DNA of 64,000 nt, taken from contig OX485806.1 in NCBI GenBank assembly GCA_950295325.1, forward strand, positions 44,015,169 through 44,079,168, given 5' to 3'. The translations under genes and the position numbers were made by a program. This document shows, in pieces, positions 12,091 to 47,189 of this stretch. This DNA comes from Polytrichum commune (taxonomy: Eukaryota; Streptophyta; Polytrichopsida; Polytrichales; Polytrichaceae). The notes under the pieces were generated by a model. That model was not told the DNA's origin, did no database searches, and saw nothing but the letters and a program-made list of their open reading frames with translations. The first letter of the stretch is position 1. Each line of letters begins with the position of its first letter.

Positions 12091-12161
12091 TGAATGACGT
12101 GTGTCATACACGTTTATGAAAAAGAACATATATATGAGACTAATAAATAAATTTGATTACT

Positions 12162-15100: not shown

Positions 15101-16007
15101 TCATTCCATATGCGCGTTCAGGCCGATGCAGAAACCCACATTTGGGATTGTGGCATTGAAGATGACCTACACAGTTAGACGACCGGAATGACAGCCCCGG
15201 CGTGTTACTGATGTTAGTAGTCATAGTCTTTGTCCATATATGACCATCGTAACGTTTGTCCATACCTTCCATAGATTTAGCATTCTTATGGACGGCAGAT
15301 GGAAGGGTGGGAGGAAGAATGAAGATTACATCCCCATTGAACGACGGTGACAGGAAATCTACGTTCTCAGTACGGATGGAATCATAGTTCAGTTTTTTTA
15401 GGATTGACTTGCTTCCAGGCATACTACCCAGGGAACGAAGGGAGGGAAGAATGTTTATGAGTTTAGTAGTTTGCGAAGGTATAAGGAAAAGAGTAGTCCT
15501 ACATGAATCTTAAGAAGAGGAGGGAGATGGACGCTTAGCACTAGACCGGATTGATGGATGGGAAGGCCTCCCCTCTTCATCAGAAGAATCAAACAAATCG
15601 ATGCTAACGCGGAGACCTGGTTCGATCTTGACACGAGACAGTAAGGGGGCTTCAGTGCACAGTGTGGAGGAACTGCGAGGAGTGAGTAGGACTGTAGTCG
15701 CATTCATGGACTCCGACAAGCCAAAGACGCGATACCTTCCGGGCTTGATTTTCCAAACGTGAGCATTATTGTCTAACGTTACGGGCTGGACGTATAAGGA
15801 ATAAAGGACATTTTGAGTTTCCGGAGAGACAACATCTATCTCTAACCACAAGCTATCAGCATCGAAACCAAAACGAATGGATAGCCACTTGGGAGTGAGA
15901 TCAGCGGTTCCATCAGGGCCAGTAGGTATGCATGTAGGGATAAGAGATCCAGGGGAAACAAGTTCGATGGCATCGAAGAGTGGAGCTTGGACAGCAGTGG
16001 AAGACAT
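12162..16007 (-). pseudogene. MULE-like transposase with SWIM zinc finger, copy B
   Basis: Reading down the minus strand from an ATG at 16007: an N-terminal domain of unknown function; a block with SNCVGHLQCHNPKCGFLH and CKICKEPPVC, then HVGNHKHPV (about 15180-14880), resembling a WRKY/GCM/FLYWCH-type Cys/His zinc-binding fold; a catalytic-like region (14560-13896) with SDH/FDH-type acidic residue, FMVDSAQANW and CYFHWTQ (the D and C-x2-H pattern of MULE transposases); an intron 13895-13626 with GT-AG borders; and a last exon (13625-12162) ending in a SWIM finger C-N-C ... C-K-H near residues 420-445 of that exon. In-frame stops at 15510-15512 (possibly removed by a small intron), 14953-14955, and TAG/TAA near 14583 and 14565 make it a pseudogene. 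MULE transposases cut and paste DNA; SWIM fingers are common in that family. Confidence 0.7.
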
Positions 16008-16200
16008 TGAGAAACAATTTGACAATGCTATGGGAGAGGGAATTTGCAAAAGAGGGATCGAAAAGAAACAATGAAATATATACATGAGAGGTTGATGAAG
16101 ACGTTGGACATCCCAGACATGTACAGAATGTAGTCAGAAAATGTTTGGTTAAATATGAGAAATATTAATAATATGTATGAACAGTAATGTGAACAATACA

Positions 16201-16638
16201 TCATGGAGTGCCAGATGAAAATGGGGCCTTTGCCATATGGGGCCCTTTGCCATATTTGTCATTGTCATGTTTATGACAATGGTCAATCCCTAAACTACGA
16301 ACTGCAGTGCATCCTACGCAATCGAGTTTCTGACCTTTGGTTCTCCTCAATATGGATCTAGAGTAAGTGCGGGGTTTAATAACCCCTGCTCTAGAATAGG
16401 GATGAATCTTGAAAGTAGACTTCTTCTGTAACAGTGATGCATCAACTGCCCGCAAAGATGGAGTCTGTGGTTGAGGAGTGGGGACGACGACCGCCGGAGT
16501 AACTGAGCAGTCAGGTGGGTTGGCAGTCTTCATGTTGTTGACGTCTGCAGAACCATCGATTGACAACGTGGTGTCAATTTGAGATGAACTAGGAGCACCT
16601 ACTGGAGCAAGGCTTGGGAGACGTGAGTCAGTACCCAT
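16201..16638 (-). CDS. Unassigned ORF between the divergent genes of copy B
   Basis: A 145-codon open frame starting at 16638 that copies A and C lack, because their intergenic spacer is only about 206 bp. The N-terminal two thirds is rich in Ser, Thr and Pro; the C-terminal third is basic (RRTKGQKLD) and then has CVGCTAVRSLGIDHCHKH, a small Cys/His cluster that could bind zinc. I do not recognise the family. Same orientation as the transposase and about 190 bp upstream of its start, so it could be a lost upstream exon, an accessory gene, or chance. Confidence 0.35.
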   Translation of the reverse strand: MGTDSRLPSLAPVGAPSSSQIDTTLSIDGSADVNNMKTANPPDCSVTPAVVVPTPQPQTPSLRAVDASLLQKKSTFKIHPYSRAGVIKPRTYSRSILRRTKGQKLDCVGCTAVRSLGIDHCHKHDNDKYGKGPHMAKAPFSSGTP

Positions 16639-17314
16639 TGGAGAAGATATTGATGAGATGACATGAGGGGAAATGGTAGCAATAATCGGGCATTATATAC
16701 AATTTGGGTAGACAGGAATACCCAAATATTTGACAACCTATTAGATCAAATAATAGTCAATATTTATTCAAGTAAATTTTGGACAACCTGTTTCATATAG
16801 GATTATAATGTACTCCATTAATAGTCATTACTTTATGACCACCAAATATGATACATGTCAGTATAGACTAATTTTCCTACGCACCAAATAAAAACACATT
16901 CTTGATTACCCAATATATGCTATGCCGAAATGCTGAAGTTAAACCTTAAAGTTGTCTATACCTTTTATGGGAAAATATTTATGGAGGCCGTCATTGTCAG
17001 GGGAGATGCGTAAATATATTGACAAATTCGAAATAGATTAATAACTGATGTCAGTGTTGTCAATGATCTAATCTCGATTCCAACGTTTTAGGGTTTAGGC
17101 GCGGAATTATAATTAGAGGACATAGCGTGCTAGAAATTAAATACAAAGGAAAGGGATTCGGAGTGTTTGCAATGGCTTTTCGGAGTGTTCGGAGTGTTTG
17201 CAATGGTCTTTCGGAGTGTTCGGAGTGTTTGGTTTTGTTTCTTTGTGTTGTAGTTGGGTCTCTAGTTTAATCGTTGTTGTACAAATTTGTGTTCATTTAT
17301 CGAAGTACCTAGCT
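16639..17314. other. Intergenic region of copy B
   Basis: AT-rich sequence without a supported gene. Near 17157-17233 a short tandem repeat (units with TTCGGAGTGTTCGGAGTGTTTG) lies just before the ATG of the ParB-methyltransferase gene. It may hold the promoter of that gene, but no clear TATA element is seen. Confidence 0.4.
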
Positions 17315-18020
17315 ATGGAGGCTACGAGCAGTAAAACAGACAAAGTGAATGAGGCAGGTCGGGGGAGGAAGAAGAAGAGAGGTGGTATGAAATTCAGTGG
17401 GTCCAAGGCTTTGCGGCGGAACGCGTTGCGGAAGAGGGATGCGTCGGGTTCTTGCGAAGACGATAGAATAGTAGATGAAACTGATAAGATCGATGAGGAC
17501 GAGGCAGGAGGGTTTGGACAGACTATAAAGATGCAGGTGTTGAACATGTATGCAGTTGAAGAAAATGTTGAGGGTGAAGATGGAAGGGACAACAATAATG
17601 CGATTGAAGAGCAAGAATGTAGAAGGGACTCAAAATCGAGGAGTGATTCTTTGGGATTCGAACAAGACAGTGACGAAGAAGGGATCGATGGAGTTGTAAG
17701 TTTGAAGACCCTAAAGCCTTGAAAGATGAGTGTTAAACTTCAGTCAGTCTTACTTGCCTAGATGTGTTTGTACACTGCGATGAGATTGAGACATTGTTTG
17801 GTGAGATTTTTGGGCAGCAAGAAGTGCAGAGAGGTGTTGCAATCGAAGGAGCAACCAGCGAAGACGTGGTGGACAGCCAGAAACAAGGAGAGGAAGAAGA
17901 ATTAGGAGATGGATTACCGGTACTTATCCCAAACCCTAGAGAGAATGTAAATGAGGAAAATCGTCCGATGTTTATGATACTCCGACATCCAAATGGTTAC
18001 ATACAAAACAAGTTGATATA
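17315..18020 (+). pseudogene. ParB-methyltransferase gene, copy B, N-terminal exons
   Basis: Exon 1 (17315-17695, exactly 127 codons) begins MEATSSKTDK and contains RGRKKKRGGMKFSGSKALRR. This aligns with the basic N-terminus of copy C (KRKKRKGGTSFSNSKQRR) and suggests nuclear targeting. An acidic Ser-rich tail follows, and a GT donor lies at 17696. A second open stretch (17764-18018) is also acidic (EEEELGDGLP). The frame across the apparent intron (acceptor at 17760-17761) does not match perfectly, so either the splice site differs or the frame is broken. Intron 1 with several repeat arrays follows, up to about 22300. Confidence 0.5.
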
Positions 18021-18329
18021 AAGTTGTGAAATCCCGTGGGGTGAACCCGACGAGGAGAATGTGCTTGAAATCAAGAATGAACATGACGTCGGATTAGGAT
18101 CACATAAGGATATATAACGATTGCTTATAACGATTGTTTGTCACGTGATAGCTTCCAGTTGTCTGTACGTGTTGAGAACTTCTGATTATTTATTCTGTAG
18201 ATGTCTTTCTTATTGACTAAGTAGCAATTGCCGATGAAACGAGATAAATCAATAAATTCATTCTATGTGACTTTTAAATTGCACTTAGATAGTTCATTAC
18301 ATTATTGGGACCCGTGAAAGGCCGTGGAA

Positions 18330-18540
18330 GAGCGGGACCCTTGAAGGGCCGGGTATAACTAGCCGGGCTCTAGTAGCCCTTGCCGGCCCGGGACACTATG
18401 ACGGGCCGGGACCATGTGAAGGCCCGGGACCCTTTGTCGGGCCGGGTCCCTTTGTCGAGCCGAGTCCCCTTATCGGGCCGGGTCCATTTGTCGGGCCGAG
18501 TCCCCTTGTCGGGCCGGGATCCTTTATTCGGGAGGGTTTA
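18330..18540 (+). repeat. GC-rich 20-bp tandem repeats in intron 1 of copy B
   Basis: Degenerate units around GGGCCGGGTCCCTTTGTCGG repeat about ten times. The core GGGTCC/GGACCC and GGGCC give local inverted repeats, echoing the palindromic nature of the longer arrays that follow. The open frame on the minus strand here (Gly-Pro repeats) is a by-product of the repeat. Confidence 0.7.
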
Positions 18541-18819
18541 GGGATGTATTCACAGTTGATCGTCCTATGAAGGAGTCCAAAAGAGCTCAAGGAGTTACAA
18601 GGATGGAGGGCACCACCGGAGACTTGGAGAACGTAAGTCCATCTTCATCGACATATTTTCATGAGTCCATTGTTCCGAAGGAGTAAAGAAGTTTCTAGTG
18701 GCCTCAAAGTATGAGGTATGTGTGATTTTGGAAACCCTAATCTATTGTATGCTTAAGTTGTATACATGTTAGATGCTTGATCAGATTGGCTTCATCGAAT
18801 GCGAAACCCTTGAGATCTC

Positions 18820-20110
18820 AAGCCTATGATGAGGCAACCCAGCCTCGGAGGCTGGGTTTGTTATTTTTGTGATTTCAAGCTTTTGATTTTAGACCTGGTG
18901 CCAGAGATGTCGCAGGCACCCCTCTTTCGCACTCTCGAGTTAGATTCTGGCAGCCTATGATGAGGCAACCCAGCCTCGGAGGCTGGGTTTGCTTTTTTGT
19001 AATTTCAAGCTTTTGATTTTAGACCTAGTGCTTGCGATAGCGTAGGCACCCCTCTCTCGCACTCTCGAGTTGGTTTCTGGTAGCCTATGATGAGGCAACC
19101 CAGCCAGCCTCGGAGGCTGGGTTTTTTTTTGTGATGTTAGGTTTTTGATTTTGGACCTGGTGCCTGCGATAGAGCAGGCACCCCTCTCTCGCACTTTCAA
19201 GTTGGAATTCTGGCAGCCTATGATTAGGGAACCCAGCCTCGGAGGCTGGGCTTGTTTTTTTGATTTTAAGCTTTTGATTTTAGACATTTGAATTTGGATT
19301 CTAGCAGCCTATGATGAGGGAACCCTGCCTCGGAGGCTGGGTTAATTTTTGTGATGTTAAGTTTTTGATTTTGGACCTGGTGCCTCAGATAGCGCAGGCA
19401 CCCCTCTTTCGAACTCTCAAGTTGGATTCTGGCAGCCTATGATGAGGGAACCCAGCCTCGGAGGCTGGGTTCGTTTTTATTTTATTTTAAGCATTTGATG
19501 TTAGACCTTTGAATTTGGATTCTGGTAGCCTATGATGAGGCAACCTAGCCAGCCTCGGAGGCTGGGTTAATTTTTGTGATGTTAAGTTTTTGATTTTGGA
19601 CCTCGTGCCTGCGATAGCGCAGGCACCCCTCTCTCGCACTCTCAAGTTGGATTCTGGCAGCCTATGATAAGGGAACCCAGCCTCGGAGGCTGGGGTTTTT
19701 TTTTTGATTTTAGGTTTTGATTTTAGACATTTGAATTTGGATTCTGGCAGCCTATGATGAGGGAACCCAGCCTCCGAGGCTGGGTTAATTTTTGTGATGT
19801 TAAGTTTTTGATTTTGGACCTGGTGCCTGCGTTAGCGCAGGCACCCTTCTCTCGCACTCTCAAGTTGGATTCTGGTAGCCTATGATGAGGCAACCTAGCC
19901 AGCCTTGGAGGCTGGGTTAATTTTTGTGATGTTAAGTTTTTGATTTTGGACCTGGTGCCTGCGATAGCGCAAGCACCCCTCTCTCGCACTCTCAAGTTGG
20001 ATTCTGGCAAGCTATGATGAGGGAACCCAACCTCGGAGGTTAGGTTCGTTTTATTTTATTTTAAGCATTTGATGTTAGACCTTTGAATTTGGATTCTGGT
20101 AGCCTCAATG
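18820..20110 (+). repeat. Double-hairpin tandem array in intron 1 of copy B, first block
   Basis: Units of alternating length (about 95-140 bp) contain AACCCAGCCTCGGAGGCTGG plus GTT, an inverted repeat with a 10-bp stem. In about every other unit there is also GGTGCCTGCG ... CGCAGGCACC, a second 10-bp stem around ATAG. Both are preceded by a TTTTGATTTTGGACCTGG or TTTTAGACC stretch that recalls the second box of the other arrays. Each unit opens with GCAGCCTATGATGAGG. Confidence 0.85.
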
Positions 20111-21190
20111 TGGCAAATGAGTAGTCCATTCGCATCTACAAGCAGCGTAGATGAAGATGGAGGGGTCATTTGTCAAAATCGGAAAATGTATGAAAAAATT
20201 ATGATGGTCTGAAGTTTCTAGGGGCTTTTTGGTAGGGACCCTCTCGGATCCAAGAGGGTGGTGGAGGGGTGGGATCTCCACATCATATTTTACTTTGGGA
20301 CCTAGGTTTGAAGGATGTGTGAGGTATTTCTTTGGGTATATGATATGTGAGAGTATATGTTTGTGTACATGATATGTCACATACACACCTTCTCGGATCC
20401 GAGAGGGTGGTGGAGGGGTGGGATCCCCACACCATATTATGCTTTGAGATCTAGGTTTGAAGGATGTGTGAGGTATTTCTTTGGGTATTTGATATGGGAG
20501 AGTATGTGTTTGTGCACATGATATGTCACATAGACACCCTCTCGGATCCGAGAGGGTGGCGGAGGGGTGGGATCCCCACATCAGATTTTGCTTTGGGACC
20601 TAGCTTTGAATAGGCATAACTCCCTCAATACTTGCCCGAACGTGGCAAATGAGTAGTCCATTCGCATCTACATAAAGCGTAGATGAAGATGAAGAGGTCA
20701 TTTGTCAAAATCGAGGAATGTATGAGAAAGGTATGATGGTCTGAAGTTTCTAGGGGCTTCTTGGTAGGTACCCTCTCGGATCCGAGAGGGTGGTGGAGGG
20801 GTGGGATCCCCACACCATATTATGCTTTGGGATCTAGGTTTGAAGGATGTGTGAGGTATTTCTTTGGGTATATGATATGGGAGAGTATATGTTTGTGCTC
20901 ATGATATGTCACATAGACACCCTCTCGGATCCGAGAGGGTGGCGGAGGTGTAGGATCCCCACATCAGATTTTGCTTTGGGACCTAGCTTTGAATAGGCAT
21001 AACTTCCTCAATACTTGCCCGAACGTGGCAAATGAGTAGTCCATTCGCATCTACATAAAGCGTAGATGAAGATGCAGGGGTCATTTGTCAAAATTGGAGA
21101 ATGTATGAGAAAGTTATGATGCTCTGAAGTTTCTAGGGGCTTCTTGCTAGGGACCCTCTCGGATCCGAGAGGGTGGTGGAGGTGATGGTG
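20110..21190 (+). repeat. Higher-order palindrome repeat in intron 1 of copy B
   Basis: A longer unit (roughly 520 bp apart for equivalent parts, for example the GTAGTCCATTCGCATCTAC segments at about 20121, 20654 and 21038) contains one or two palindromes ACCCTCTCGGATCCGAGAGG followed by a GGTGGTGGAGGGGTGGGATC segment. The palindrome is the same as in copies A, C and D although the surrounding sequence is unrelated. Confidence 0.8.
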
Positions 21191-21655
21191 AAATAATTGG
21201 GTATGGACTAGAGAAGGACCCTCTCGGATCCGAGAGGGTCTTCACTTGAGGGCTTGAGGACCACATTTTGATTTCAAGGCTAGGCATTTAGTATGTGTAG
21301 TTGGGTCAACTTGTTTGGACTGATTCGGTTTTGATGGTGAATTAGTTGGGTATGGAGTAGAGAAGGACCCTCTCGGATCCGAGAGGGTCTTCACTTGAGG
21401 GCTTGAGGACCACATTTTGATTTCAAGGCTAGGCACTTAGTACGTTTAGTTGGGTCAACTTGTTTGGACTGCTTCGATTCTCATGGTGAATTAGTTGGGT
21501 ATGGAGTAGAGAAGGACCCCCTCGGATCCAAGAGGGTCTTCACTTGAGGGCTTGAGGACCACAATTTGATTTCAAGGCCAGGCACTTAGGATGTGTAGTT
21601 GGGTTGAACTTGTTTGGACTGCTTCGGTTTTGATGGTGAATTACTTGGGTATGGA
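21191..21655 (+). repeat. Two-box array of copy B (149-bp units)
   Basis: Three units with palindromes starting at 21219, 21368 and about 21516 (period about 149 bp). The second box is GAGGACCACATTTTGATTTC, a recognisable version of the box in copies A, C and D. This shows the same two-box design in the most diverged copy. Confidence 0.85.
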
Positions 21656-22240
21656 CTAGATGATGAGGGAACCCAGCCTCGGAGGCTGGGTTATTTTTTT
21701 TGATGTTAAGTTTTTGATTTTGGACCTGGTGCCTGCGTTAGCGCAGGCACCCCTCTCTCGCACTCTCAAGTTGGATTCTGACAGCCTATGATGAGGGAAC
21801 CCAACCTCGGAGGCTGGGTTTTTTTTTTGATTTTAAGCTTTTGATTTTAGACCTTTGAATTTGGATTCTGGCAGCCTATGATGATGGAACCCAGCCTCGG
21901 AGGTTGGGTTCATTTTTTTTGATTTAAAGCTTGTGAATTTAGACCTTTGAATTTGGATTCTAGCAGCCTATGATGAGGGAACCCAACCTCGGAGGCTGGG
22001 TTAATTTTTGTGATGTTAAGTTTTTGATTTTGGACCTGGTGCCTGCGATAGCGCAGGCACCCCTCTCTCGCACTCTCAAGTTGGAATTCCGGCAGCCTAT
22101 GATGAGGGAACCCAGCCTCGGAGGCTGGGTTTGTTTTTTTGATTTTAAGCTTTTGATTTTAGACCTTTCAAGTTGGAAATTGGCAGCCTATGATGAGGGA
22201 ACCCAGCCTCGGAGGCTGGGTTTTTTTTTGTGTGTTTAAG
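21656..22240 (+). repeat. Double-hairpin tandem array in intron 1 of copy B, second block
   Basis: Return of the units with the CCCAGCCTCGGAGGCTGGG hairpin and the GGTGCCTGCG/CGCAGGCACC hairpin, six hairpins of the first type. The two blocks flank the palindrome arrays, which suggests the latter expanded inside an older array. Confidence 0.85.
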
Positions 22241-22474
22241 GTTGTTCATCTTAATGTTATTCACTTTTTCTAAATCATATTCATTTGTTTTCCATATGCA
22301 GGTTTCTCCACGTATGATGACTCCGACTACAACAGTTTAGTCATTGGTTTACATGCTGTGACAACTATGTCTAATTATCTTGTCCAATTGACTCCTCCAA
22401 GACTTGTTATTCATGGGATTATTGATTTATAGTCTTTTCCTAATGGTATTGTGTTTCGTTTACCTATCTTGCAG

Positions 22475-23863
22475 ATGACTTTAGGCGATGTGCTTGTACC
22501 TGAGCAAGTCCCACCTCCATCTATAGATTCCTTTGAGGAGTTTAGCATTCCTTCGGAGAATCAACATTCTTCTACCTCATATGTTGCCGACATGGAAGAG
22601 GATATTCCTCCGAATGCCCCATCCTCCAGTCAACACGCTGCCGATACTAGCCATCATGTTGAGGAAGCCGATACCATACAGGACGCCACCCAAGAAGCGA
22701 TTGAGTCGAGCGACATACGCTCGCCAAAGCCCTTCCGTCCTCCTAGTGGTGTTGAACTTGGCATTGTTCACATGCCCCCTCATCTGGAGGACAAGGACCC
22801 TATGTGGAGCGCAAATGAGATGAGGTTGCTGCAGAAGAGTGACTATAACACAGTCATCTCCAAGCTTCGCACCAAACCCATTAAGAAGTCTCGATTCCTT
22901 ATTCCTCTTTGCCGTCTCAAGACCTACCCGAAGGTGCGTCCAATTGTCGATTCAGACGTCGAGATGTTGGCTAACGAGTTCATCAAAGGGTATCGAGAAG
23001 GTGATCGAATATTGTACGTGTCTCCTTTCGACATCACGGACAAGGACCTAGCGGTTCGAGAGGACGACGCCATCTGGTCTAACCCGCTATGGAAAGCCAC
23101 TAATGATGAGTTCGAGGAGTACTTGTCCTTTGATCATGATCTCCATCATTTTCGGAACAAATACTTTTACGTCTACGAAGGCAATCACCGCGTGACGGCT
23201 TGGATGGGTTACATCCACAAGTACCATTCCAATAATTCTGACTGGTACATTTCGGTTGACTGTATTGTTCTCAACGCGATGAACAACATCAACTGGTAAC
23301 TATACTTGCAAATCCATTTCCATTCATTTCATATTCAATTCAATCAGTGAAAGCTTGTTTTAATTCTGATATTGTAACTCACAGGTCCACGGAACATGAT
23401 TATGTTCAAGACAGTACTATTGCCAAGTTGCAAAGAATTCGAACCTTCGGCGCATTCAAACTTTCTGATTTCAAAGGTCTTATTAGCAAAGAGGACATGG
23501 CTATTTGCGAAGTTTATAAACCCCGTGTACCGTCATGGTATCCACTCACAATGGACATTTTCGTTAAATTCCTTCACGCAGTGAGTTTTCTTGAATTATG
23601 TACTTATCATTTTCATATTATGAAGTGCATCATGCGTTTCTTGCATCTTAATTATTGTCATACAGAGACAATGCGCTGCTGCACCCGACGCTGCTTGCTC
23701 GAACTACTACGAGACCGTGCCCGAGAATGAGAGGACTGGGCTTGGAGTCTAGAGCGCGATGAACAAGGCGATCACGAAGTGTGTCAAGTATTGGCGCAGC
23801 CAAAGGTTCGACAAGATGGTTGCAATCGCCAACCCAACCAATGGAGAGTTATTTGAACACGAG
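22475..23863 (+). pseudogene. ParB-methyltransferase gene, copy B, ParB-like domain exons
   Basis: Exons 22475-23295, 23385-23580 and 23666-23863, all with GT-AG borders. The first is open for 273 codons: a Ser/Pro/acidic linker, then a ParB-like domain from about 22880: SRFLIPLCRLKTY, VRPIVDSDVEMLANEFIKGY, then FYVYEGNHRVTAWMGYI and a VDCIVL strand. The G-N-H-R motif corresponds to the conserved G-x-x-R of ParB/sulfiredoxin-fold domains. The order of elements (strand, helix with La-x-x-I/F-x-x-G, G-x-H-R, final strand) supports the assignment. This is the best-preserved ParB domain in the window. A TAG at 23750-23752 replaces a Trp found in copies A and C, so the transcript as it stands would be truncated. 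Confidence 0.65.
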
Positions 23864-23939
23864 GTATTCAATTCCTTGGTCACATTTTCAGTTTCCAAGT
23901 CATCTGGTCTTTTTGCTTTTTCACTTTATTTTTGTTCCT

Positions 23940-24097
23940 ATCAACTCTACTCTCAACTCAACTCGCAACTCTCACCTCTCAACTGTCAACTGTCAACTCA
24001 ACTCGCAACTCTCAACTCTCAACTCTCAACTCTCATCTCTCATCTCTCAACTCTCAACTCACAACTCACAACTCAACTCTCAACTCTCAACACTCAA

Positions 24098-24128
<31 letters not shown>
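23940..24128 (+). repeat. CAACTCT heptamer microsatellite in an intron of copy B
   Basis: Near-perfect tandem CAACTCT with CAACTCA and CATCTCT variants, about 190 bp, wholly inside the intron 23864-24142. It is a pyrimidine-rich run just before the AG acceptor, so it may act as an oversized polypyrimidine tract. ORFs through it (Ser-Gln-Leu repeats) are not genes. Confidence 0.9.
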
Positions 24129-24142
24129 CATTTTCCACGCAG

Positions 24143-25447
24143 CTCAATAAACACTATACTAGCGGGAAATCATTGGACTTGACCGTTGAGCGACTTCATA
24201 AAATTGCAACCACCAAGGTCCATCAAGACTTCAAAGGAAAATGGTTGCAATTGTGGAACGGAACGGACGAGGAACGGGCAGCCTACCGATTTCCCCTAGA
24301 TCGTCCAATGAAGGACAAATTCCTCGACGCCTGGTTGCCAAGGGCTTCTATCTGGGCTCAGGTATGACGATACTTACTTCCTCTAGGCTCTTCATTTTTA
24401 ATCCGTTCTAATCAATGTTACTTCTAACACCCATCGTTTCATAATGTATGTCAGTTGTCTACTTTCCTTAATGACCACATCGACAACTATGTCGCTAAAC
24501 TTAAGATCAACATTGAGTGGAGCGCCGTTGTTCTCAAGCCGGCGGAATACGTGGAGAAATGGAGATCGCTATTGTGGAAGAAGGCTTTCCCCTTCTACCT
24601 CTCGGAAAATGCAAGCCCAAGGTTTCTGAAAGGTTCAGAGCTCCTAAAGATTGAAGGTGGAATTTTAGCGGGCCGCTTGTTTTACAGGTTTGTATGATTT
24701 GACTTCTTGTTTGATTCAGTGTTCTCTTTGTCTCTATCACCCTTACTAAATGTAACGCATATATACAGGTACATGAAGCAAGAGCTCATCGCCAAACGTG
24801 CTCTTCCGGCTTAGGAAGTTCCGACTCATGTCGAGCTCAAACCGTCTACACAAACGCCTATTGAGGAACTTTGGACCGAAGACCAACGCAATCGATTTCC
24901 CAATGAGGTGTTGCTCACAGGTGGTTGGTTCCTCGAGTGCCCACCAAACTTCGTTCCTGAGGAGGAGAAACACCTCGTCCCTGTCCCGGAACCATATGCA
25001 GGAGGAGCGGCTCCTATGGTCACTGACTTAAACGACGACGACGACGACGAGGAAATTCAGCCTGAACCTGCTCCGAAGCCAAAAGTTCAACGTCGAGGGA
25101 AGGTTCGTTCTCGCGACGGTTCCATTGTTGCAGCCTCACCTGCAGGAGTTCAAATTCCGGTAGGACCTCCTTTGGCTTCGACTCAGACTTCGCAACGCAC
25201 GGTTTCTAATCCGCCATCACCTCCACGTTCCAACTTGGATGTTCAATCTAGCCAAACTCATCATGTCACACACTCTGGCCGTGGTGTACCACCCCCGAAA
25301 GGTGTAGGTGCCATTTCGTCTTCGCCGTTTAAGACGAGCCTACCGATGTTTCTTGAGCATGGAAACTTCTGTGCCTTGCTTAACCAGTCTGAACACCAGA
25401 AATTCATGGATCGGCAACTTGTCCGTATCGTAGACCACATTATCAAG
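24143..25447 (+). pseudogene. ParB-methyltransferase gene, copy B, middle exons
   Basis: Exons 24143-24361, 24455-24687 and 24769-25447. The first encodes LTVERLHKIATTKV...PRASIWAQ, equivalent to the copy A exon ending SFWAQ. In copies A and C the next intron is filled with repeats; here it is short (24362-24454). The second encodes a Trp-rich segment (EYVEKWRSLLWKKAFPFYL). The third starts YMKQELIAKRALP, has a TAG at 24812-24814, then a stretch GGWFLECPPNFVPEEE conserved in copy A, an Asp run, and a long Pro/Ser/basic linker. None of these middle parts matches a family I know. The linker leads into the methyltransferase-like domain. Confidence 0.55.
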
Positions 25448-25556
25448 GTCACACAATCCCATATATCACTAACACTATCAATTTGACAATTTTCTTGGAC
25501 TAGTGAGGTTTTTTATTATCGGTAACTCATGCTTTCCACTACTCTTATTCATACAG

Positions 25557-26837
25557 ATCGGGGTCGGCCGTACTTATCTTTGTGAATCGATGCAAATGCG
25601 GCCTAGGCATCCTGGAATTGATCTCGTGATTGTTGACGCTCCCGAAGACTTGGTCGTGCCTGTCATCTCCCCCATGTCCATACCATCGTGGAACAAGCGA
25701 GAGATAGAGTACTTTGACCAACTCTTCGCCTTCGCAGATTGTCACTTGACCGATGACGGAGTTGTTCTACTCTTCCATCCCAAGGATCGTCGAATCGAGA
25801 AGAAGTTAGATAGTAAAATCAAAATCTATGATTTTACGATTGTCCGGGATTGGTGGGGCTATAATCCCATTCCCATGGCCTCCTCCCTTCCACACCAGAA
25901 AGAGGTATTATCTTTTATGTTCATAATTTGAATTTCTCAATCCGACAATCAGTTTCAATATCTACTTATCCTTGAGGTTGTCTTACAGACCCATAACTTC
26001 AACATTAAGGTCTTTGCACGCCTTAGTTCCAAGTTCCGCACTCGCCGATTGCGACCACAGTTCGTACAAATGGAGATCCTTCCCGAAGAGCGCGACGACT
26101 TGACGAACTTCACGACAACCGAGTCCCAACTTCTACGCCCTAGCGGACTTCCTTGGCGTGGCTCGCGTGAGAAGGACCCATCCTTTGTTCAGTGCTTCAT
26201 CGAGTGTCTTACAAACGAGCGTGATATCGTCTGCGACTGGAGCCCTAGTACAGGTTTTCAATATCTCCCTTCATCGTTTACAACAGCTGAAACTGAATTC
26301 CACTTTCTAAATTCCGTTTTCCAACCTGCAGGTGCTTCTGTCATTGCTTGCCAACGTTCAAACCGACACCTCATCGCGTTGGAGCCGGATTCAGAAATCT
26401 TTGAGGCGCTTCTCAAGCCTTACGTGGATGCGATCCCGCAACCAGAAGAGCGCGCGGATTCAACCACAGACTCTGATTCTGAGGAAGACATCGCGCCAAA
26501 GAAGAAGGGTCGCAAGTATTGCGGTGCGTCTTAACTCCATGTCTTAAGTCTTTCAAACATTTAATGTATTCATAGAATTTGTCATGCTGACTTTGTTTTA
26601 TTGTTTAGTGACGCAGGTCTCGCACAACGTTTGATCCGCCACGCTAATGTCTACATGAGTCCTCCTACTTCGTTCGCCTTACCTTCATATGCCGAACGTA
26701 TAGCACAGGATTTCATACGCGCCCCATCTCCAATCCTTTCAGATTCTCCACGTCAACTTTTTAACCCTACAGTGCTTAGATACATGGATGTCGAGGCTGA
26801 TCAATGTGACCAGAGTTTCGATGTTGGTTCACCTTGA
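25557..26837 (+). pseudogene. ParB-methyltransferase gene, copy B, methyltransferase-like domain and C-terminus
   Basis: Exons 25557-25904, 25989-26253, 26332-26523 and 26617-26837, all open and in frame. The order of motifs is that of beta-class N4/N6 amino-methyltransferases: a beta strand DLVIVDAPEDL at the place of the catalytic DPPY, SWNKREIEYFDQLFAFA and DDGVVLLFHPK (the K/D-G-G-x-L region), then LPWRGSREKDPSFVQCFIECL, and late in the chain CDWSPSTGASVIACQRSNRHLIALEPD, matching the D-P-F-x-G-S-G ... G-R-x-x-I-G-I-E-x-D S-adenosylmethionine site. DPPY has become DAPE and the G-x-G is S-x-G, so activity is doubtful. A 70-residue tail is conserved in all copies. The stop is TGA at 26835-26837. 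Confidence 0.6.
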
Positions 26838-28699
26838 TCATGACTATCCATATGTTTGTTTCTTTTCTCTCGCCACGTGCATAATGTAGCCATTTCAAAT
26901 GGCCATTTCTTTTTAAAATAAAACATCTACAAGTTTCTTTGTGTCATAGCTATTGTAGACTTGTCAAAGAAGTTCAAAGAAGTTGAAGTTTGAAAGTTTG
27001 AGTTAAGCCATTTGCACTGAAATGCATGTGCACACTTCAAACTTGAACATTGAATTGACTCTATCTAACAAAACCTAGTAAGGACATGTCTTCGGTTTTT
27101 ATGTCAATTGTATATAAATTGTTGAAGTGCATTTTGTTTATTTTAAAGCTTAGAAATATATACATATATATTGTATTCTTCCATAAATGCTACCGTTGTT
27201 GAACCCTAGTTTCAACTCGTTTCTTCAATTGGATAATCTCACTAGAAGGACAATGCATTTCCTTCAATGGTTATTTTGCATTTTTAAAAATATGAATAGC
27301 ATTTTAACACAAAAAAATAAGTTTTATTGCCTCCAAACACCCGTGGGGCGTTTGGTTATGTTTATGGGCACATGCTGCCAATTATAATTGCAGCATTGTA
27401 CTAACTGAAAAAGCTGAATGATTGCCAACCCTTAAAAGTTGCCTAAGTTCAGAGGGGGCCTTGGCGAGAATAATAATGAAAATTCTTGTTTATACTCCAT
27501 CTTTAGTCGTTTCTTAAAGAAGCAACCTGTCATAGAATATTTTAATCTCCTTAACGAGGTAAATTCTCCATTTAAGTACTAAGTTGAAGACCATATTTAT
27601 GGTGTAAATATGGTCAAGTGCATCATATAATTTAGCATACAGTTCTAGCATCAATGTCAAAATTTGTGATGTATGGGAGGGAATTATGAAAATAAGGAGT
27701 GAGAATTAAAACTCAAAACATCCATTCTTTAGGGTTTTGAGATATAAGAAGCAATGTCAATAAGGAGGTTAATACAAGAGAATTTATAGTATATTGCATG
27801 GGAGAGTCAACAATTTAAATAAGTTACATTGGAGTGTGTTATTTGAATACATTTTTTCGAGGGGGCACCTATTCATAATTAGTATGTGATTAGTTGAAGA
27901 TCAAAGAACAAAATCATGGGGGGGAAAGGGGGACATGGGCAATAATGATCTTTTCTTCCACATAACATTTTGGTTGGAGGATAACATTCAAGGGCTTTTA
28001 CATAATGAGCAAATTCAGCTTTACCGTGATTCGGTAACTTAAATGAATGGCATTCACTTTTCACGTTCACTCTAGATTTGCACCCATAGCATTGCATATC
28101 TAGAACTCATCCACCGTGAAAACCCTAGAATAGTATGTAACTTTGAGTACTATTGTATCTTAGTAATTTGACATCAAAATTTGAGGCCAATCAACAATTA
28201 ACCTAAAGGGGTCAAGTCTAGATAATGTATGGATGAAAGTTATGCTCGTACGTGATAATCACCCTTTTCTAGCCACTTCAAAAGAGCCATGTGTCAAGAG
28301 GTTTTGGGCTTAAAGTAGACGTGCTTAATTCAGTTACTTATGTTAATGAACACCTATCTTTGAGTGGTATGTGGTTAGATGTAGCTACAAAAATGGAAAC
28401 CCAAACAAATAAAAAAGATCGGACTATATACTCTATAGTATAATGACCATCCTAGACGCAATACCTAATGAACATATTTGAGGGGACCTACCTACATGAC
28501 CGATTAACGAGCACAAGAATATTCACTTGTTGGATTGTATAAATTTCGCCATTTACATTATTGTTTCGAGGATGCCCGCATCTAAATGATGAAGGCAACC
28601 CTAATTACGCCCTTAGCCTTAAACACTAAAACAAATTTGTGAATTAATTAAAACACAATTTCATTTCAACCTTGAACGGTCCTCATTTAAATCACCCTT
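26838..28699. other. 3' flank of copy B, no gene supported
   Basis: AT-rich sequence downstream of the ParB-methyltransferase stop. A polyadenylation-like AAAATAAAACATC occurs near 26916. The only longer frame (27879-28097, minus, with several Cys) has no support. No repeats of the two-box type are seen here, unlike the 3' flank of copy C. Confidence 0.5.
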
Positions 28700-28939
28700 T
28701 CATTTAAACGATGACATCAGCCCTAATTTCACTATATATATATTAACAAAAATTTGTTGTAGGACCCCCTTCCACGGATTTGGGGTACTCTTTTCCCTAA
28801 AAATATACATTTACAATTTTGTCCGGACCAAATTCAGTGGTAATAAGATCCTTATGTTTCAATAAATTTTTGAAAAGCGAGCGGAGAAATTCACGAAAAC
28901 ATGACGCTCACCGCTCTACGCTCATGCTGTAACTTTCCC
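28700..28939 (-). repeat. Right terminal inverted repeat region of copy B
   Basis: The outer part reads, on the minus strand, GGGAAAGTTACAGCATGAGC and then GTAGAGCGGTGAGC, a diverged form of the GGGAAACTTAGTAGTGTGAGC end of copies A and C. The inner part has GACATCAGCCCTAATTT (about 28704), shared with copy A (GACGTCAGCCCTAATTT at about 36196). Long terminal repeats of this kind are typical of MULE elements. Confidence 0.65.
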
Positions 28940-30331
28940 CGGGTGATATCTTGAAATTCTTTGGGAATCCACTAGAGTCCGACCCTCTCGCATCCGACAA
29001 GGTCTTGGGTTGGAGTGTTTGGACCAGATTTTGACTTGAATAGGTTGTAATATGGATGTATATATATGTTCACTACCTAGATTCATATCTTGAAATTCTT
29101 TGGGAATCCACTAGAGTCCCACCCTCTCCGAACCGAGAGGGTCTTGGTTGCGTTTGTTTGGACCAGATTTTGACTTTAATGGGTTTTAATATGGTTGTAT
29201 ATATATTTTGACTAGCTAGGGTGATAACTTAAAATCCTTTTGGAATGCGCTAGAGGCCGACCGTCTTGGATCCGAGAGGGTCTTGGTTGCGTTTGTTTGG
29301 ACCAGATTTTGACTTGAATGGGTTGTAATATGGTTGTATATATATTTTGACTCTCTAGGGTGATAACTTGAAATCCTTTTGGAATCCACTAGAATCCGAT
29401 CCTGTCGGATCCGAGAGGGTCTTGGTTGTGGTTGTTTGGACCAGATTTAGACTTGAATGGGTTGTAATATGGATGTATATATATGTTGACTACCTAGGGT
29501 GATATCTTGAAATTCTTTTGGAATGGACTAGAGTCCGACCCTCTCGGATCCGACAAGGTTTTGGGTTGCGTTGCTTGGACCAGATTTTGACTTGAATGGG
29601 TTGTAATATGGATGTGTATATATTTTGAGTACCTAGATTCATATCTTGAAATTCTTTGGGAATCTACTAGAGTCCCATCCTCTCCAAACGGAGAGGGTCT
29701 TGGTTGCGTTTGTTTGGACCAGATTTAGACTTGAATGGGTTGTAATATGGATGTATATATATGTTGACTACCTAGGGTGATATCTTGAAATTCTTTTTGA
29801 ATGGACTAGAGTTCGACCCTCTCGGATCCGACAAGGTCTTGGGTTGCGTTGCTTGGACCAGATTTTAACTTGAATGGGTTGTAATATGGATGTATATATA
29901 TATTGATTACGTAGGGTGATATCTTGGAATTCTTTGGGAATGCACTAGAGTCCGACCTTCTCAGATCCGACAAGGTCTTGGGTTGGGTTGCTTGGACCAA
30001 ATTTTGACTTGAATGGGTTGTAATATGGATGTGTATATATGTTGAGTACCTAGATTCATATTTTGAAATTCTTTGGAAATCCACTAGAGTCTGATCCTCT
30101 CGGATTCGAGAGGGTCTTGGTTGCGGTTGTTTGGACCTGAATTAGACTTGAATGGGTTGCAATATGGATGTATATTTATGTTGACTACCTAGGGTGATAT
30201 CTTGAAATTCTTTTGGAATACACTAGAGTCCGACCCTCTCGGATCCGACAGGGTTTTGGGTTGGGTGGCTTGGACCAGATTTTGACTTGAATGGGTTGTA
30301 ATATGGATGTGTATATATGTTGAGTACCTAG
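28940..30331 (+). repeat. Second-intron two-box array of copy A, right part
   Basis: Ten units continuing the array that was split by copy B. Several palindromes have GATCCGACAAGG, so the right arm is damaged in this sub-family, while the second box GGACCAGATTTTGACTTGAA is well kept. The array ends at CCTAG immediately before coding sequence at 30332. Confidence 0.85.
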
Positions 30332-31134
30332 ACATCGACTGGGCTTCTACGGAAGATCTTTTGCAACCTGCTCATTTTGTCGAGCATTGGAGGCTCATTT
30401 TGTGGGACAAGGCTTTTCGGGTGTATTTTGACGACTAGGGAGACTTGATGTTGACCAAAGGGCTCGATCTCATGGAGTTCGAGGAAGGCCCCATAGCTAT
30501 CTAGCGTGTTGCTTATCGGTAATCATTTTTCTTTTTCTTTTCTCCTTCATATCTTCGTTTGGTTTCACTTATTCCACTCCATTTCTTTGTTCTTATGTTC
30601 TTCAATCTCTAGATATATTCACCGTGAGCTTGTCGTGAAGAATGCTCTTCCTTCTTCGTCCTTCCCGTCATTCCTTGAAGATTGGATCGATGACAACTCA
30701 AATCTTTGTGTGTACACACCCATTCAACTTGCAAAATTTCCAAGTGTGCATTTTGGTGGCTGGTGGTTGGTACTTGGATAGCTCTCGTGGATTCGTTCCC
30801 GACGTAGAATAACCCTTCTACAACAACCTCGCTTCCTTTGCGCCTGAGGTTCTTGAATTGGAGGAAGAGCCGGAAGAAGATGTTCCCACCATATCATTGA
30901 ATATTTGTTTTTTTTCCTAAATTTTCTTTGCATTTTGGCTTTGCAGGTTGGAGCGAGACATACTCGTCTGAATACCAAGCCTAAGGTTCACACAGGGCTT
31001 GATATATTCTTTGCAGATGTGCACGAGAACCTGCGTGTGCCGAACATCTCGTCATCATCCTCGGATGTTCCTCAGTGGAACAAACGTTATTCCACGTACT
31101 TTGAGGTTTTGTTTGCCTTCGCAAGCGTAAACCT
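30332..31134 (+). pseudogene. ParB-methyltransferase gene, copy A, exons 7 to 9 (5' part)
   Basis: Exon 30332-30518 lacks the first 60 or so bases present in copy C (LEKGVEDEIA...); the array runs straight into it. It carries TAG stops at 30436 and 30502. Exon 30613 to about 30889 starts YIHRELVVKNALPS and is frameshifted near 30760. The Pro/Ser linker of copy C is deleted. Exon 30947-31134 starts the methyltransferase-like domain (DIFFADVHENLRVP, QWNKRYSTYFEVLFAFAS) and is cut by a 3.76-kb insertion at 31135. The catalytic position reads DVHE instead of DPPY. Confidence 0.6.
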
Positions 31135-32108
31135 TTGTGGGAGCCCAAAAATCCACGGAAGTCCGGATTGGCTTCCTAACCGGATTAATATCCGGATAAT
31201 ACCCTGGTATTGGTCTCAAAGTAGGGTTTCCTTGGGTAGGTTAGTTGTTTTACGAAATAAGGTTCTAGGCATCCGCCTTACGCATTAAAATGGTTAGAAC
31301 GGATACTTTGGCTGGACCGGATATTAATCCGGGGAGACCGTTTAAAAACGGCAAGGTCCGGAGCGTCCGGTCCGGAAAACGGTTACACCGGAACCCGAAT
31401 GGTTGCAACGGAATATGAAAGGTTGCGGAGGAAACGGTTACGGACCCATACCCGTAAGAGGAAGAGGGAGAAAATACTTAAGGGAATTTCGAGCCATTTG
31501 CGTGAGCGGCATTGTTGAGAGAACGAGTGGTGAGCTATTTTTTTCGAGTCAGCAGCAGTTGGATTGCTGGGATTCCTTAGTGGTTAGCGGATAGAATTCC
31601 GAAGGGAAGAAGCCAGGGATTGTTGGAGGTTTGAGGGTGCGAAGCAAAATGCCGGAAGCATGAGAGGGAGCAGGTCCCAATTCCCGTGAAATGAACATCG
31701 GAGGTATGGGCAGGGGTTTACGAATTTCCGAGAGGAAAGGGTGAGGGCTGGGCTAGCCGCCGAGATAATTTTTATGTAGGAAAATTCCGAACGGATCCTG
31801 ATTTGAAGGACGGATTCCATCCCGAGAATTGTAGGAACCTTAGAGAGCGGAGAGTGATAGAATTCATCCTCCCCATACTCAGTCCGGAAAAGCCGACGCG
31901 GCTCAACATCACTATGGCCAACACCATGTTTGGAACAATGTCCGGAGTCCACCCCGTCAATTGGGGTAGATTAATTCAGGAGTATGTGGAGAAATCTCTC
32001 CCCCACATTGGTCGAAAACCCTCCTTTCTTTCCCCCTACATCCTCTACCAGCTCCACGGCTGCATCAATGATGCGTAAGAGGATTAGCTGACGATCGCGG
32101 AAGACGAA

Positions 32109-32825
32109 GTGGTGTACAAGCTCGGTCTGGAAGTCAAGATTGCGGAAACCGGAACAGAGGACTCAAATGACACCGCAGTTCTGGAACCACCTCCCGCTTC
32201 ATCCCCACCGAAAATCCGGAAACCAGCCTCACCACCACCACGACAGGAAGCCGGACACAGCCAGGAAGTGCCCTGGAGGGACATCGACCTATCTACATTT
32301 GAGTTCTCGGAAGCCCCCTTCAAGCGTGTCCGAAATGAGTTGACGGAGCTCCAGAAACAATATTTCCGGATGGAGCACATCACTTGCGGGGTGAACAGGG
32401 CCTTAGGCAACTGTGGACCCGGAAATATCCTCTGGGAGTTGGCCAAGCGGACGGACGGGAAACAGATGGAGACCCTGGAGACGGAGAAGGAACAGGTGGC
32501 GGCACAGGTGGCCATTATGACCCGGGAGCTCGCCCAGAAGAGCGAGGAGATCTGGAAGTACCAGGCGGAACAAGCTGTGGTTCTGAGCCAACCGGGATTT
32601 GGTGGGCCATCCAGGAGACTTCGTCAACAAAGCGCACGTCTACGACCAACTGATGGAGTCAGCGGATCCATCTTCCGCCCGACAAACGCTACGGATCCTT
32701 GTGAAGTACTCCTGCTCCATGAAGGATCTGCTCAAGGAGATCCAGAAGCTTCTACCTTTCAGTGGCACCCCCAGGCGGATGCTTTATCCTGGTCCACCCG
32801 GGTTTCCAACAGGCACGGTATATGA
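32109..32825 (+). CDS. Hypothetical protein with coiled coil, carried by the 3.76-kb insertion
   Basis: An open frame of 238 codons. Residues 20-60 are Pro/Ser-rich. Residues 70-160 include TELQKQYFRMEHI and METLETEKEQVAAQVAIMTR with regular heptad-like Leu/Ile/Val spacing, so a coiled coil is likely. The C-terminal third lacks recognisable features. The layout recalls gag-like proteins of non-autonomous retroelements, but no zinc knuckle is present. A second smaller frame (33175-33546) follows and may be a broken continuation. Confidence 0.4.
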   Translation: MVYKLGLEVKIAETGTEDSNDTAVLEPPPASSPPKIRKPASPPPRQEAGHSQEVPWRDIDLSTFEFSEAPFKRVRNELTELQKQYFRMEHITCGVNRALGNCGPGNILWELAKRTDGKQMETLETEKEQVAAQVAIMTRELAQKSEEIWKYQAEQAVVLSQPGFGGPSRRLRQQSARLRPTDGVSGSIFRPTNATDPCEVLLLHEGSAQGDPEASTFQWHPQADALSWSTRVSNRHGI

Positions 32826-33599
32826 GGTGATAGGGGAGGTTGAGCTAGTTCCAGCCTCATAGGCGGGTGCGGGGTCCAGCCAGCCAGAGGGCATTTCCCA
32901 GCCACCGGAATCCGGAAGATTTCCGGATCGAGAGGAGACTCCTGTTTCGAAACGGACCCGCTCATCCCTAGTTCGACAGAAGAGTACAAAACGGTCAGCC
33001 AGGTCCGGACGTGGACAATAACCGAATCCGGATCAGGGTAGGGCGTCAAGGCGGTCCCGAAAGCTGGAGAAGGCCAGAACTCCGGAAAGGATGAGGACGC
33101 CAGATCGGACGAAGACTCCGGATAGGGGTAAGGCCCCGGTGTCGTAGGTTTCGCAAGCTCCCGCTCTTGACTGTATGATAGTGGAGTCGTGGGCTCCTCC
33201 TCCCTCATACGCGATGTCCGCAAGGGATCCCCGGACGACTTGCATCTCATGTGGTCGGAACAAAGAGCGGACCATTGGAGGTGACCCTTCACTTGGCCAG
33301 AGGTTCTGGAAGGAGAAGAATGTTTCCGGTGCAGCGCGATTCGGAGCAAGTGACGGATCAGGAGAGGATCCGCCCGTGGCAGACGATTCCGAAGAAGAGA
33401 TCGCCCCCTCCCCAAACATGAGGAGGGTATTTACAAGGCTGGACGAGCGACGACTTTTGACCCCCGGAGGAGGCTCTTCCGCCATCAGCGGGCCTGCGAG
33501 TCAATCCAAGGAAAGGACGGCTTCGGAGAAGCATCACACCACCTAGTTTAGATTTAGGCATATAGCTGCAGATAGTTCAGAATTAGGAAGGGAGAGTTT

Positions 33600-34001
33600 T
33601 TGATACCCCTTTTGAGTTTTTGGCAAAAATGTAAATTCAAATTTTTGTCAACGCGAAAAGCGGATCGAGATTGGGAAATTCCGCGAAGGATGCGTTTCCG
33701 AATTTCTCGCTGCCTGGGGTTTTGAGGGCGGCCGCCTGGGCCGCCACCAGTAGTTAGGTATTGTGGCCTTTACTTAAGGCTAAATAAGGAGCTTGAGAAG
33801 GGTTCTCTTCTCCGATGTTGTATTTTGTTGCTCCCTATTCAATAAAGCTTTAATTCTCCATATATTCTGAATTGTTTTGTGCACGGAATGTTAGGAAAAA
33901 TGTTGCAGATCTAGAGGGAATGGATGAGTAGGAAATACAGATTTGACAAAGGTGAGGAATCCCGGATCGGATCCGACTGCAGTACTATGGATCCTTTCTG
34001 A
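33600..34001. other. Noncoding part of the 3.76-kb insertion
   Basis: No gene is supported. A possible polyadenylation signal AATAAA occurs at 33841-33846 following a TTCTCTTCTCCGATGTTG segment, which looks like the end of a transcription unit or an R-region. Confidence 0.35.
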
Positions 34002-47131: not shown

Positions 47132-47189
47132 CTGAGATGAAAGAAAACAAAAGTTAGAAATGTGGTTAAACTCTGGTTCTTCACACCTA

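What the first reader, a model, noticed from the sequence alone, without database searches (positions are those of the whole stretch)
22475..26837. ParB-like domain fused to an N4/N6-type DNA methyltransferase-like domain in a eukaryotic transposon gene with many introns
Seen: three separate copies (A, B, C) share an exon series with a segment containing VRPI and GNHR followed by a final strand, and 500 or more residues later a region with strand-D-x-P/H-E, D-D-G-V-x-x-F and D-W-x-x-x-x-G-x-S-V-I-A ... E-x-D. Known: phages and bacteria often encode ParB-N domains joined to beta-class amino-methyltransferases. Inference: this plant-type mobile element acquired such a fusion and domesticated it with introns and a nuclear-type basic N-terminus. 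I know of no described plant MULE carrying this protein.
Basis: partly seen in the sequence, partly recalled or inferred. Interest (0 to 1): 0.95.

Follow-up and report, generated by a model that had tools for sequence, protein, structure and literature searches.

The report
Plant transposon with ParB-methyltransferase-like gene
A family of jumping genes in a plant genome carries, beside a transposase-like gene, a ten-exon gene whose protein ends in a worn-down bacterial-type DNA methyltransferase and begins with a possible ParB-like domain, often with a palindrome-bearing repeat array just upstream, hinting that the element recognises and epigenetically manages its own DNA.

Summary
In detail: the window has three copies (A, B, C) of a multi-exon gene. 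Copy B is decayed (two in-frame stops; the left 435 bp of its element are missing). Genome relatives show an accessory gene divergent from a transposase-like gene, in DNA transposons with 10-bp target duplications (4 of 4 delimited insertions; three are B-type, 13.9 kb). One relative reads as 10 GT-AG exons, 1135 aa, no internal stop. Mean dN/dS is about 0.2 in both halves.
The methyltransferase half is supported: a family profile matches an N6-adenine methyltransferase (DpnA) at E=7e-6, and a sister lineage passes the PF01555 cut-off. The rows that cover motif IV have lost DPPY (D-x-P/S-E/D/K); the sister keeps D-I-P-Y. The ParB half fits by motif order only, with no significant match. "MULE" fits by target duplication and SWIM-like motif, not by Pfam.
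ParB-methyltransferase accessory genes are already reported in algal transposons (PMC12477816), so this is a new variant of a known kind, here in a plant. New: motif loss under purifying selection, and tandem arrays 242-350 bp upstream of exon 1 in 19 of 23 copies, mostly with 22-26-bp palindromes. Best mechanism: VANC-like self-recognition against silencing (inferred).

The parts
12092..28940 (.). B-type element (copy B); right end ...CTCATGCTGTAACTTTCCCC present, left 435 bp including the left terminus missing
   Evidence: Right ends line up to the base in the 12 sequences examined; left end from three whole relatives, window homology starts at element position 436
12162..16133 (-). transposase-like gene of the B element, several ORFs; SWIM-like CxC...CxH in 12162-13643, CYFHW (CxxH) in 13863-14558
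   Evidence: ORFs; DNA 92-97% identical to the 493+738 aa ORF region of a TSD-bounded relative; no MULE or SWIM Pfam match
18821..22229 (.). tandem arrays upstream of the accessory gene, with palindromes AACCCAGCCTCGGAGGCTGGGTT, GGTGCCTGCGATAGCGCAGGCACC, ACCCTCTCGGATCCGAGAGGGT
22475..23295 (+). copy B exon 1: acidic N-terminus and possible ParB/sulfiredoxin-like domain (VRPI ... GNHR)
   Evidence: exon end AACTG|GTAACT
23385..23580 (+). copy B exon 2
   Evidence: borders carried over from L013
23666..23863 (+). copy B exon 3, with in-frame TAG 23750-23752
24143..24361 (+). copy B exon 4
24455..24687 (+). copy B exon 5
24769..25447 (+). copy B exon 6, with in-frame TAG 24812-24814; low-complexity linker
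25557..25904 (+). copy B exon 7: MTase motif IV region, IDLVIVDAPEDL ... LTDDGVVLLF
25989..26253 (+). copy B exon 8: end of MTase domain up to motif I strand (REK..., IVCDWSPSTG)
26332..26523 (+). copy B exon 9: helix and acidic strand after motif I (SVIACQRSNRHLIALEPD), KKKGRK
26617..26837 (+). copy B exon 10, C-terminal tail and stop
6868..9751 (.). 139-bp tandem array upstream of copy A, palindrome GACCCTCTCGGATCCGAGAGGGTC
10066..11499 (+). copy A exons 1-4 (interrupted gene; a stop in exon 1)
28941..30331 (.). 139-bp array of copy A resuming after the inserted B element
30328..35696 (+). copy A, later exons (30328-30519, 30947-31135, 34867-35052, 35146-35406, 35538-35696), split again between 31135 and 34867
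45149..51280 (-). copy C of the gene (exon 1 at 51280 down to the MTase end at 45149), with stops
51630..52455 (.). 117/138-bp array upstream of copy C, palindrome ACCCTCTCGGTTCCGAGAGGGT
56664..59873 (+). transposase-like gene divergent from copy C (split ORFs); the ends of this element were not looked for

Best explanation
Shown: the feature is the accessory gene of a high-copy plant DNA transposon (13.9 kb in the B type, 10-bp target duplications), transcribed away from a transposase-like gene. In an uninterrupted relative it reads as a 10-exon, 1135-aa protein. Its C-terminal part is descended from a beta-class amino DNA methyltransferase (N6_N4_Mtase) whose catalytic aromatic motif is lost in the window lineages. 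Both this part and the N-terminal globular part are under purifying selection. Likely but not shown: the N-terminal part is ParB/sulfiredoxin-like. Inferred: the protein is a self-recognition factor. It binds, as a dimer, the palindrome repeated in the tandem array just upstream of its own gene and elsewhere in the element, much as ParB loads on parS clusters and VANC loads on motif arrays of VANDAL MULEs, and there keeps element promoters free of host silencing. The SAM-type domain now works as a ligand-binding or DNA-holding module in the window lineages, and possibly still methylates in the D-I-P-Y lineage.
For: Element limits and 10-bp target duplications in 3 of 3 B-type copies tested and in one E-type insertion of about 10.2 kb; divergent gene pair inside the B type; 10 exons with GT-AG introns, 1135 aa, no internal stop in L013. 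MTase: profile of unaltered fragments hits DpnA at E=6.8e-6, then a collagen-like protein 0.74 and CcrM 0.84 (same region with a first alignment at 4.4e-5); PHROG (DNA) methyltransferase families for L034 at 3e-4 and L028 at 5e-4; PF01555 over its cut-off at two chromosomal loci of a sister lineage, one of which was read in part, and the family profile recognises its two pieces at 6e-8 and 2e-9. Motif IV is D-[AVIL]-[PS]-[EDK] in 8 of 8 rows that cover it, against D-I-P-Y in the sister. Selection: dN/dS 0.22 (exon 1) and 0.23 (MTase exons), ratios of means over 78 pairs of 13 copies. Arrays upstream of exon 1 in 20 of 23 copies, gap 242-350 bp in 19 and 498 in one; best palindrome equalled by at most 2 of 100 shuffles in 15 of those 20; 36 near-perfect 24-bp palindromes in the window against 0-1 in 5 shuffles; 330 exact copies of one 24-mer in the genome, 0 of its reversed control. 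VANC precedent read in passages of PMC5735166.
Confidence: 0.45

Rival explanations
1. The protein still methylates DNA: it binds the element's own arrays and writes N6-methyladenine or N4-methylcytosine there (the view taken for the algal proteins), with D-x-P-E/D as an unusual but working catalytic motif or with the D-I-P-Y lineage supplying activity in trans.
For: Beta-class MTase ancestry; motif I region conserved including the acidic residue after the next strand; sister lineage keeps D-I-P-Y; published proposal of binding and modifying the own transposon (passage).
Against: The aromatic fourth residue of motif IV (its role is recalled) is E, D or K in the 8 rows that cover it, and also E in L027 and copy A; motif I is altered in B (DWSPSTG).
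Confidence: 0.25
2. The protein serves the transposition reaction rather than silencing: a ParB-like clamp on palindromic repeats that pairs the ends or shields the excised DNA.
For: ParB-like order of motifs; arrays lie between the two genes and, for copy A, on both sides of exons 1-4.
Against: The clearest arrays are next to exon 1, not next to the termini; transposase-only families are common among MULE-like elements (general knowledge).
Confidence: 0.15
3. A captured host gene carried as passenger (Pack-MULE type) without function for the element.
For: MULE-like elements often capture genes (PMC6431247, passages).
Against: The gene recurs beside a related transposase-like gene in B, C and E types, and its exon set recurs in A, D and F types; purifying selection, with dN/dS mostly 0.14-0.28 between lineages in the printed pairs but about 0.25-2 between the youngest copies.
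Confidence: 0.05
4. The N-terminal domain is not ParB/sulfiredoxin but an unrelated a+b DNA- or protein-binding fold with a chance GNHR motif.
For: No significant match in any search.
Against: Motif order and spacing, predicted strand/helix order, and the independent report of ParB + MTase accessory proteins of nearly the same length (1104 aa) and orientation in algal transposons.
Confidence: 0.25

Closest known systems
ParB + DNA MTase accessory gene of Sola1-1_Ec32 in Ectocarpus, and the green and red algal relatives cited there (Iyer 2011; Petroll 2025) (PMC12477816, passages only; the two cited works are not held)
   Same: One long accessory protein (1104 aa there, 1135 aa here), gene on the strand opposite to the transposase, ParB-like part plus N4/N6 MTase part, large DNA transposon
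   Different: Here a plant genome and a TSD-10, SWIM-motif transposase-like partner instead of Sola1; catalytic motif degenerate in the window lineages; palindrome-bearing arrays next to the gene. Whether the algal proteins are homologous to these could not be tested
VANC anti-silencing proteins of VANDAL MULEs in Arabidopsis (PMC5735166, passages)
   Same: Accessory protein of a MULE-type element; [quoted passage not shown]
   Different: No MTase or ParB domain is described in the passages read; the VANC21 motif is 9 bp (YAGTATTAY), not a 22-26 bp palindrome
Phage and bacterial ParB-methylase fusions (L045, Latilactobacillus phage; Bce_0392 in PMC5512222, passages)
   Same: ParB_N followed by N6_N4_Mtase in one protein
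   Different: L045 has DPPY and both Pfam domains over their cut-offs, one open frame of 384 aa
N4CMT of bdelloid rotifers (PMC8885841, passages)
   Same: Bacterial-type amino-MTase taken up by a eukaryote and tied to transposons
   Different: A rotifer gene with a chromodomain, tied to transposon silencing, not described as carried by a transposon in the passages read
C5 DNMTs in retrotransposons and TET/JBP in DNA transposons (PMC5890265, PMC12730594, search listing with starts of abstracts only)
   Same: Mobile elements carrying DNA-modification enzymes
   Different: Other enzyme families and other element classes

Membership tests
N6_N4_Mtase (PF01555), beta-class amino-MTases | Significant profile match | tested here: met
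   Met for the family: DpnA E=6.8e-6, PF01555 over cut-off at 2 chromosomal sister loci (32.2 and 30.6 bits, cut-off 26.7), linked to the family by profile. Window exons alone and the whole L013 protein: no Pfam match
N6_N4_Mtase (PF01555), beta-class amino-MTases | (D/N/S)PP(Y/F/W) catalytic motif (recalled) | tested here: not met
   DAPE, DLPK, DVPD, DVPE, DIPE, DVSE in 8 of 8 rows that cover it; DIPY in the sister
N6_N4_Mtase (PF01555), beta-class amino-MTases | Motif I after motif IV (permuted order), with acidic residue after the next strand | tested here: met
ParB_N (PF02195) / ParB-sulfiredoxin superfamily | Significant sequence or profile match | tested here: not met
[quoted passage not shown]
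   Predicted order of strands and helices agrees, but pLDDT 43.5 and no Foldseek match at E<=0.001
ParB_N (PF02195) / ParB-sulfiredoxin superfamily | Arg after strand 1 and G-x-x-R-x-x-A after strand 3 | tested here: met
   R69 and G150/R153/A156 invariant in the 16 rows aligned, which were chosen without stops; one phage ParB has GNHRFKA. Single decayed copies depart (window C, L022)
Mutator-like elements (MULE) | 8-11 bp target site duplication | tested here: met
   10 bp in 3 of 3 B-type copies and in one E-type insertion; range from a PMC6446971 passage
Mutator-like elements (MULE) | MULE transposase domain (PF10551) | tested here: not met
   No match in hmmscan; none of the 150 listed genome matches (of 271 candidates) lies at the transposase-like genes of the window, L029, L030 or L031
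Mutator-like elements (MULE) | SWIM zinc finger | tested here: inconclusive
   CxC...CxH by eye in B and E types; PF04434 11.8 bits against cut-off 19.6 in L011
Algal ParB-MTase transposon accessory proteins | ParB-like + amino-MTase protein encoded opposite to the transposase of a DNA transposon | tested here: inconclusive
   Architecture agrees, ParB part not significant; no algal sequence at hand for a homology test
VANC | Binding of own tandem-repeated motifs and loss of methylation | not testable with these tools
   Only the array layout could be shown

The most novel reading that the evidence does not exclude
A plant transposon superfamily runs a ParB/parS-like self-recognition system: a ParB-fold protein fused to a methyltransferase that has become a conserved pseudo-enzyme loads on 22-26-bp palindrome arrays next to its own gene and wards off host silencing, while a rarer lineage with D-I-P-Y still writes a bacterial-type base mark in plant DNA.
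Probability: 0.2. Interest if true: 0.85.

Novelty: new variant of a known kind. Interest (0 to 1): 0.6.

Why it matters
It extends ParB-methyltransferase transposon accessory proteins, reported in algae, to a plant genome (GRAS and LFY families present), in a very high-copy family with near-identical young copies. It shows the methyltransferase motif lost while the domain is kept by selection, and offers candidate DNA targets (palindrome-bearing arrays), so the open question of what these accessory proteins do becomes directly testable.

Tried and rejected
Pfam, PHROG, NCBIfam and PDB searches with single window exons: empty or chance matches, and none for the whole L013 protein in Pfam. Relatives in viral and prokaryotic collections: 13, 5 and 59 pattern matches, none confirmed. 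Structure prediction of both domains: too poor to use; Foldseek on exon 1 gave 0 of 124 matches at E<=0.001; the MTase model was not searched. hhalign of exon 1 against 11 ParB sequences: E 0.073, 2 of 60 shuffles at least as good; with the insert cut out E 0.049, 7 of 200; first half alone 11 of 200, second half alone 3 of 200. This is reported as not significant. Host-gene capture was considered and disfavoured (selection, recurrence in several types). Endogenous virus was considered: no viral relative was confirmed, and the target duplications and transposase-like partner argue for a DNA transposon. The claim that no such element is described was dropped. Paper searches made on this question.
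Full report
What is there. Copy B of the gene lies at 22475-26837 and two related copies lie around it: A on the same strand, split by insertions, and C on the other strand. Copy B carries two in-frame TAG codons. The window sits at 44.0 Mb of contig 4 of a 408-Mb assembly in 64 contigs. GRAS (70 matches) and LFY (4 matches) domains, with no match in the 14 control genomes, mark it as a plant (that these families mean plant is general knowledge). The species is not known to me.

A transposon gene. Exon 1 has 141 scored matches in the genome, 16 of them 79-100% identical (itself included), the rest 41-53%; the MTase exon has 150 scored matches in each of two searches. I fetched 20 copies. In the 12 sequences whose right end I examined, homology stops at the same base...GCTGTAACTTTCCCC; L024 and L025 end differently. 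For three B-type copies the upstream side was fetched too, and in all three a 10-bp target duplication flanks an element of 13.85-13.93 kb: ACGAAACAAT, GTATGTGCGC, CTGATTTCCA. The ends are imperfect inverted repeats sharing GCATGAGCGTAGAGC. The left part holds a transposase-like gene on the minus strand (ORFs of 738 and 493 aa in one copy), the right part the accessory gene on the plus strand. In the other two copies the 493-aa frame is split, so none of the three shows both genes uninterrupted: L012 and L010 have a stop in an MTase exon, and L013 has the split transposase-like frame. The window copy lacks the first 435 bp of the element.

Other types. Copy C has the same divergent layout with the ORFs at 56664-59873; its ends were not looked for. 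A further type (E) sits inside exon 6 of another B copy: an insertion of about 10.2 kb with the 10-bp duplication GTTTCTTGAG and similar ends (GAGGGAAGCTATCTTATGAGCG.../...CGCTCATAAGATAGCACTCCCC) holds an MTase-like gene on one side (L034) and a transposase-like gene on the other (L011); the 5.3 kb between these two loci were not read.

The transposase-like protein. It shows CxC...CxH (SWIM-like) and CYFHW (CxxH), read by eye with motif meanings recalled. Its only Pfam match is DUF4074 below cut-off (0.12-0.19), and none of the 150 listed PF10551 matches, of 271 candidates, lies at these loci. A related type gives a sub-threshold SWIM match. I call it MULE-like on the 10-bp duplication, within the 8-11 bp range given in PMC6446971, not on family membership.

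The uninterrupted relative. L013 reads as ten exons, nine GT-AG introns, 1135 aa and one terminal stop. Its first 95 residues are acidic. The whole protein has no Pfam match at E up to 10.

The ParB half. Across the 16 rows chosen, R69, P70, G150, H152, R153 and A156 (numbering of the first row) are invariant. The proposed register places VRP on the ParB NPR and GNHRVTA on G-x-x-R-x-x-A, with about 45 extra residues between. hhalign follows this register once the extra stretch is removed, but only at E 0.049 and with 7 of 200 shuffles as good; with the stretch kept it does not. AlphaFold is of low confidence, although the order of strands and helices agrees, and Foldseek has nothing at E<=0.001. 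I rate the ParB reading at about 0.7, leaning on the published algal case.

Selection. Among 13 B-type copies (78 pairs; L011, L018, L020 and the duplicate loci L034, L035 left out) the ratio of mean dN to mean dS is 0.22 for exon 1 and 0.23 for the MTase exons. In the pairs printed (those with copy B or L013) it is mostly 0.14-0.28 between lineages, with exceptions (copy B against L009: 1.0 in exon 1 and 0.42 in the MTase exons; against L014: 0.66 in the MTase exons), and 0.25-2 between L013 and its closest copies. Codons with stops were skipped; for most pairs of different types dS is saturated. This is what a gene needed while elements are active, and decaying after insertion, would give.

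The arrays. In 20 of 23 sequences (20 fetched copies and window A, B, C) a tandem array of 117-360-bp units ends upstream of exon 1, 242-350 bp away in 19 and 498 bp in L028; L010, L026 and L027 have none within 800 bp (in types other than B the distance is to the start of the exon-1 match, not to a known start codon). The unit often contains a 22-26-bp palindrome: GACCCCTGCGCTGGCGCAGGGGTC, GACCCCTGCGTTGGCGCAGGGGTC, GGTGCCTGCGATAGCGCAGGCACC, GACCCTCTCGGATCCGAGAGGGTC or ACCCTCTCGGTTCCGAGAGGGT. At most 2 of 100 mononucleotide shuffles of the unit match it in 15 of 20; not in L013, L022, L023, L025, L028; L024 is among the 15 with a 27-bp one of another sort. A looser count was less clear: a control stretch without arrays (26900-28900) also exceeded its shuffles (7 against 1.4), and some arrays hardly did (L016 3 against 2.0; L024 6 against 3.4). 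In 19 array rows of the window that were chosen for a palindrome, the core is far better conserved than the flanks, though that choice favours the core. The window holds 36 near-perfect 24-bp palindromes, five shuffles 0-1. One 24-mer occurs 330 times in the genome, with 0 for the reversed control. The resemblance to VANC targets, motif arrays in introns and upstream regions that differ between related families, was read in passages of PMC5735166.

What is known. [quoted passage not shown] the two cited works are not held). The kind is therefore known. I found no paper on a land plant case in the listings, which cover open-licence papers only.

Verdict. A real, selected, high-copy transposon gene; MTase ancestry established for the family, ParB ancestry likely but unproven, catalytic motif lost in the window lineages. 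Self-recognition of palindrome-bearing arrays to resist silencing is my best mechanism (0.45), with self-methylation as the main rival.

Noticed in passing
G000:C12:29034-30278, C10, C23: Small contigs of the assembly carry Pfam-positive ParB_N (C10, C12, C23) and N6_N4_Mtase (C10, C12); on C12 both lie in 501-aa open frames, probably one, so these look like bacterial or phage contaminant contigs.
   Followed up: no
G000:C4:44111740-44112387 (about 33 kb right of the window): A copy of the D-I-P-Y sister lineage in a 577-aa open frame, one of nine 95-98% alike copies.
   Followed up: partly
window 23941-24128; L016 4911-5178 and 6507-6859: A TCAACTC heptamer microsatellite sits in introns 3 and 6 of the gene and expands differently between copies.
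   Followed up: no
window 10024-11432 and 50019-51322; 2-906 and 52454-53371: Long inverted repeats 84-89% alike: copies A and C are related elements in opposite orientation in one nested cluster.
   Followed up: partly
G000, e.g. C3:5249899, C1:62616961; C2:64967365, C5:45074671: A subfamily whose exon-7 matches share the same score in ten copies, and another score in nine, many with open frames of 452 aa or more, points to a recent burst.
   Followed up: partly
L028:8645-9088: This copy has no intron between the last two MTase exons, as has the E type (L034), so intron presence varies within the family.
   Followed up: no
L011:48-2731: The E-type transposase-like gene has open N-terminal and SWIM parts, but only about 100 bp between them, as if the middle with the DDE core were deleted.
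   Followed up: no
L026:7723-8162: The last 430 bp of this copy, whose gene is only about 45-50% alike to B in protein, are 92-94% identical to B-type right ends, as if ends were exchanged or kept between types.
   Followed up: no
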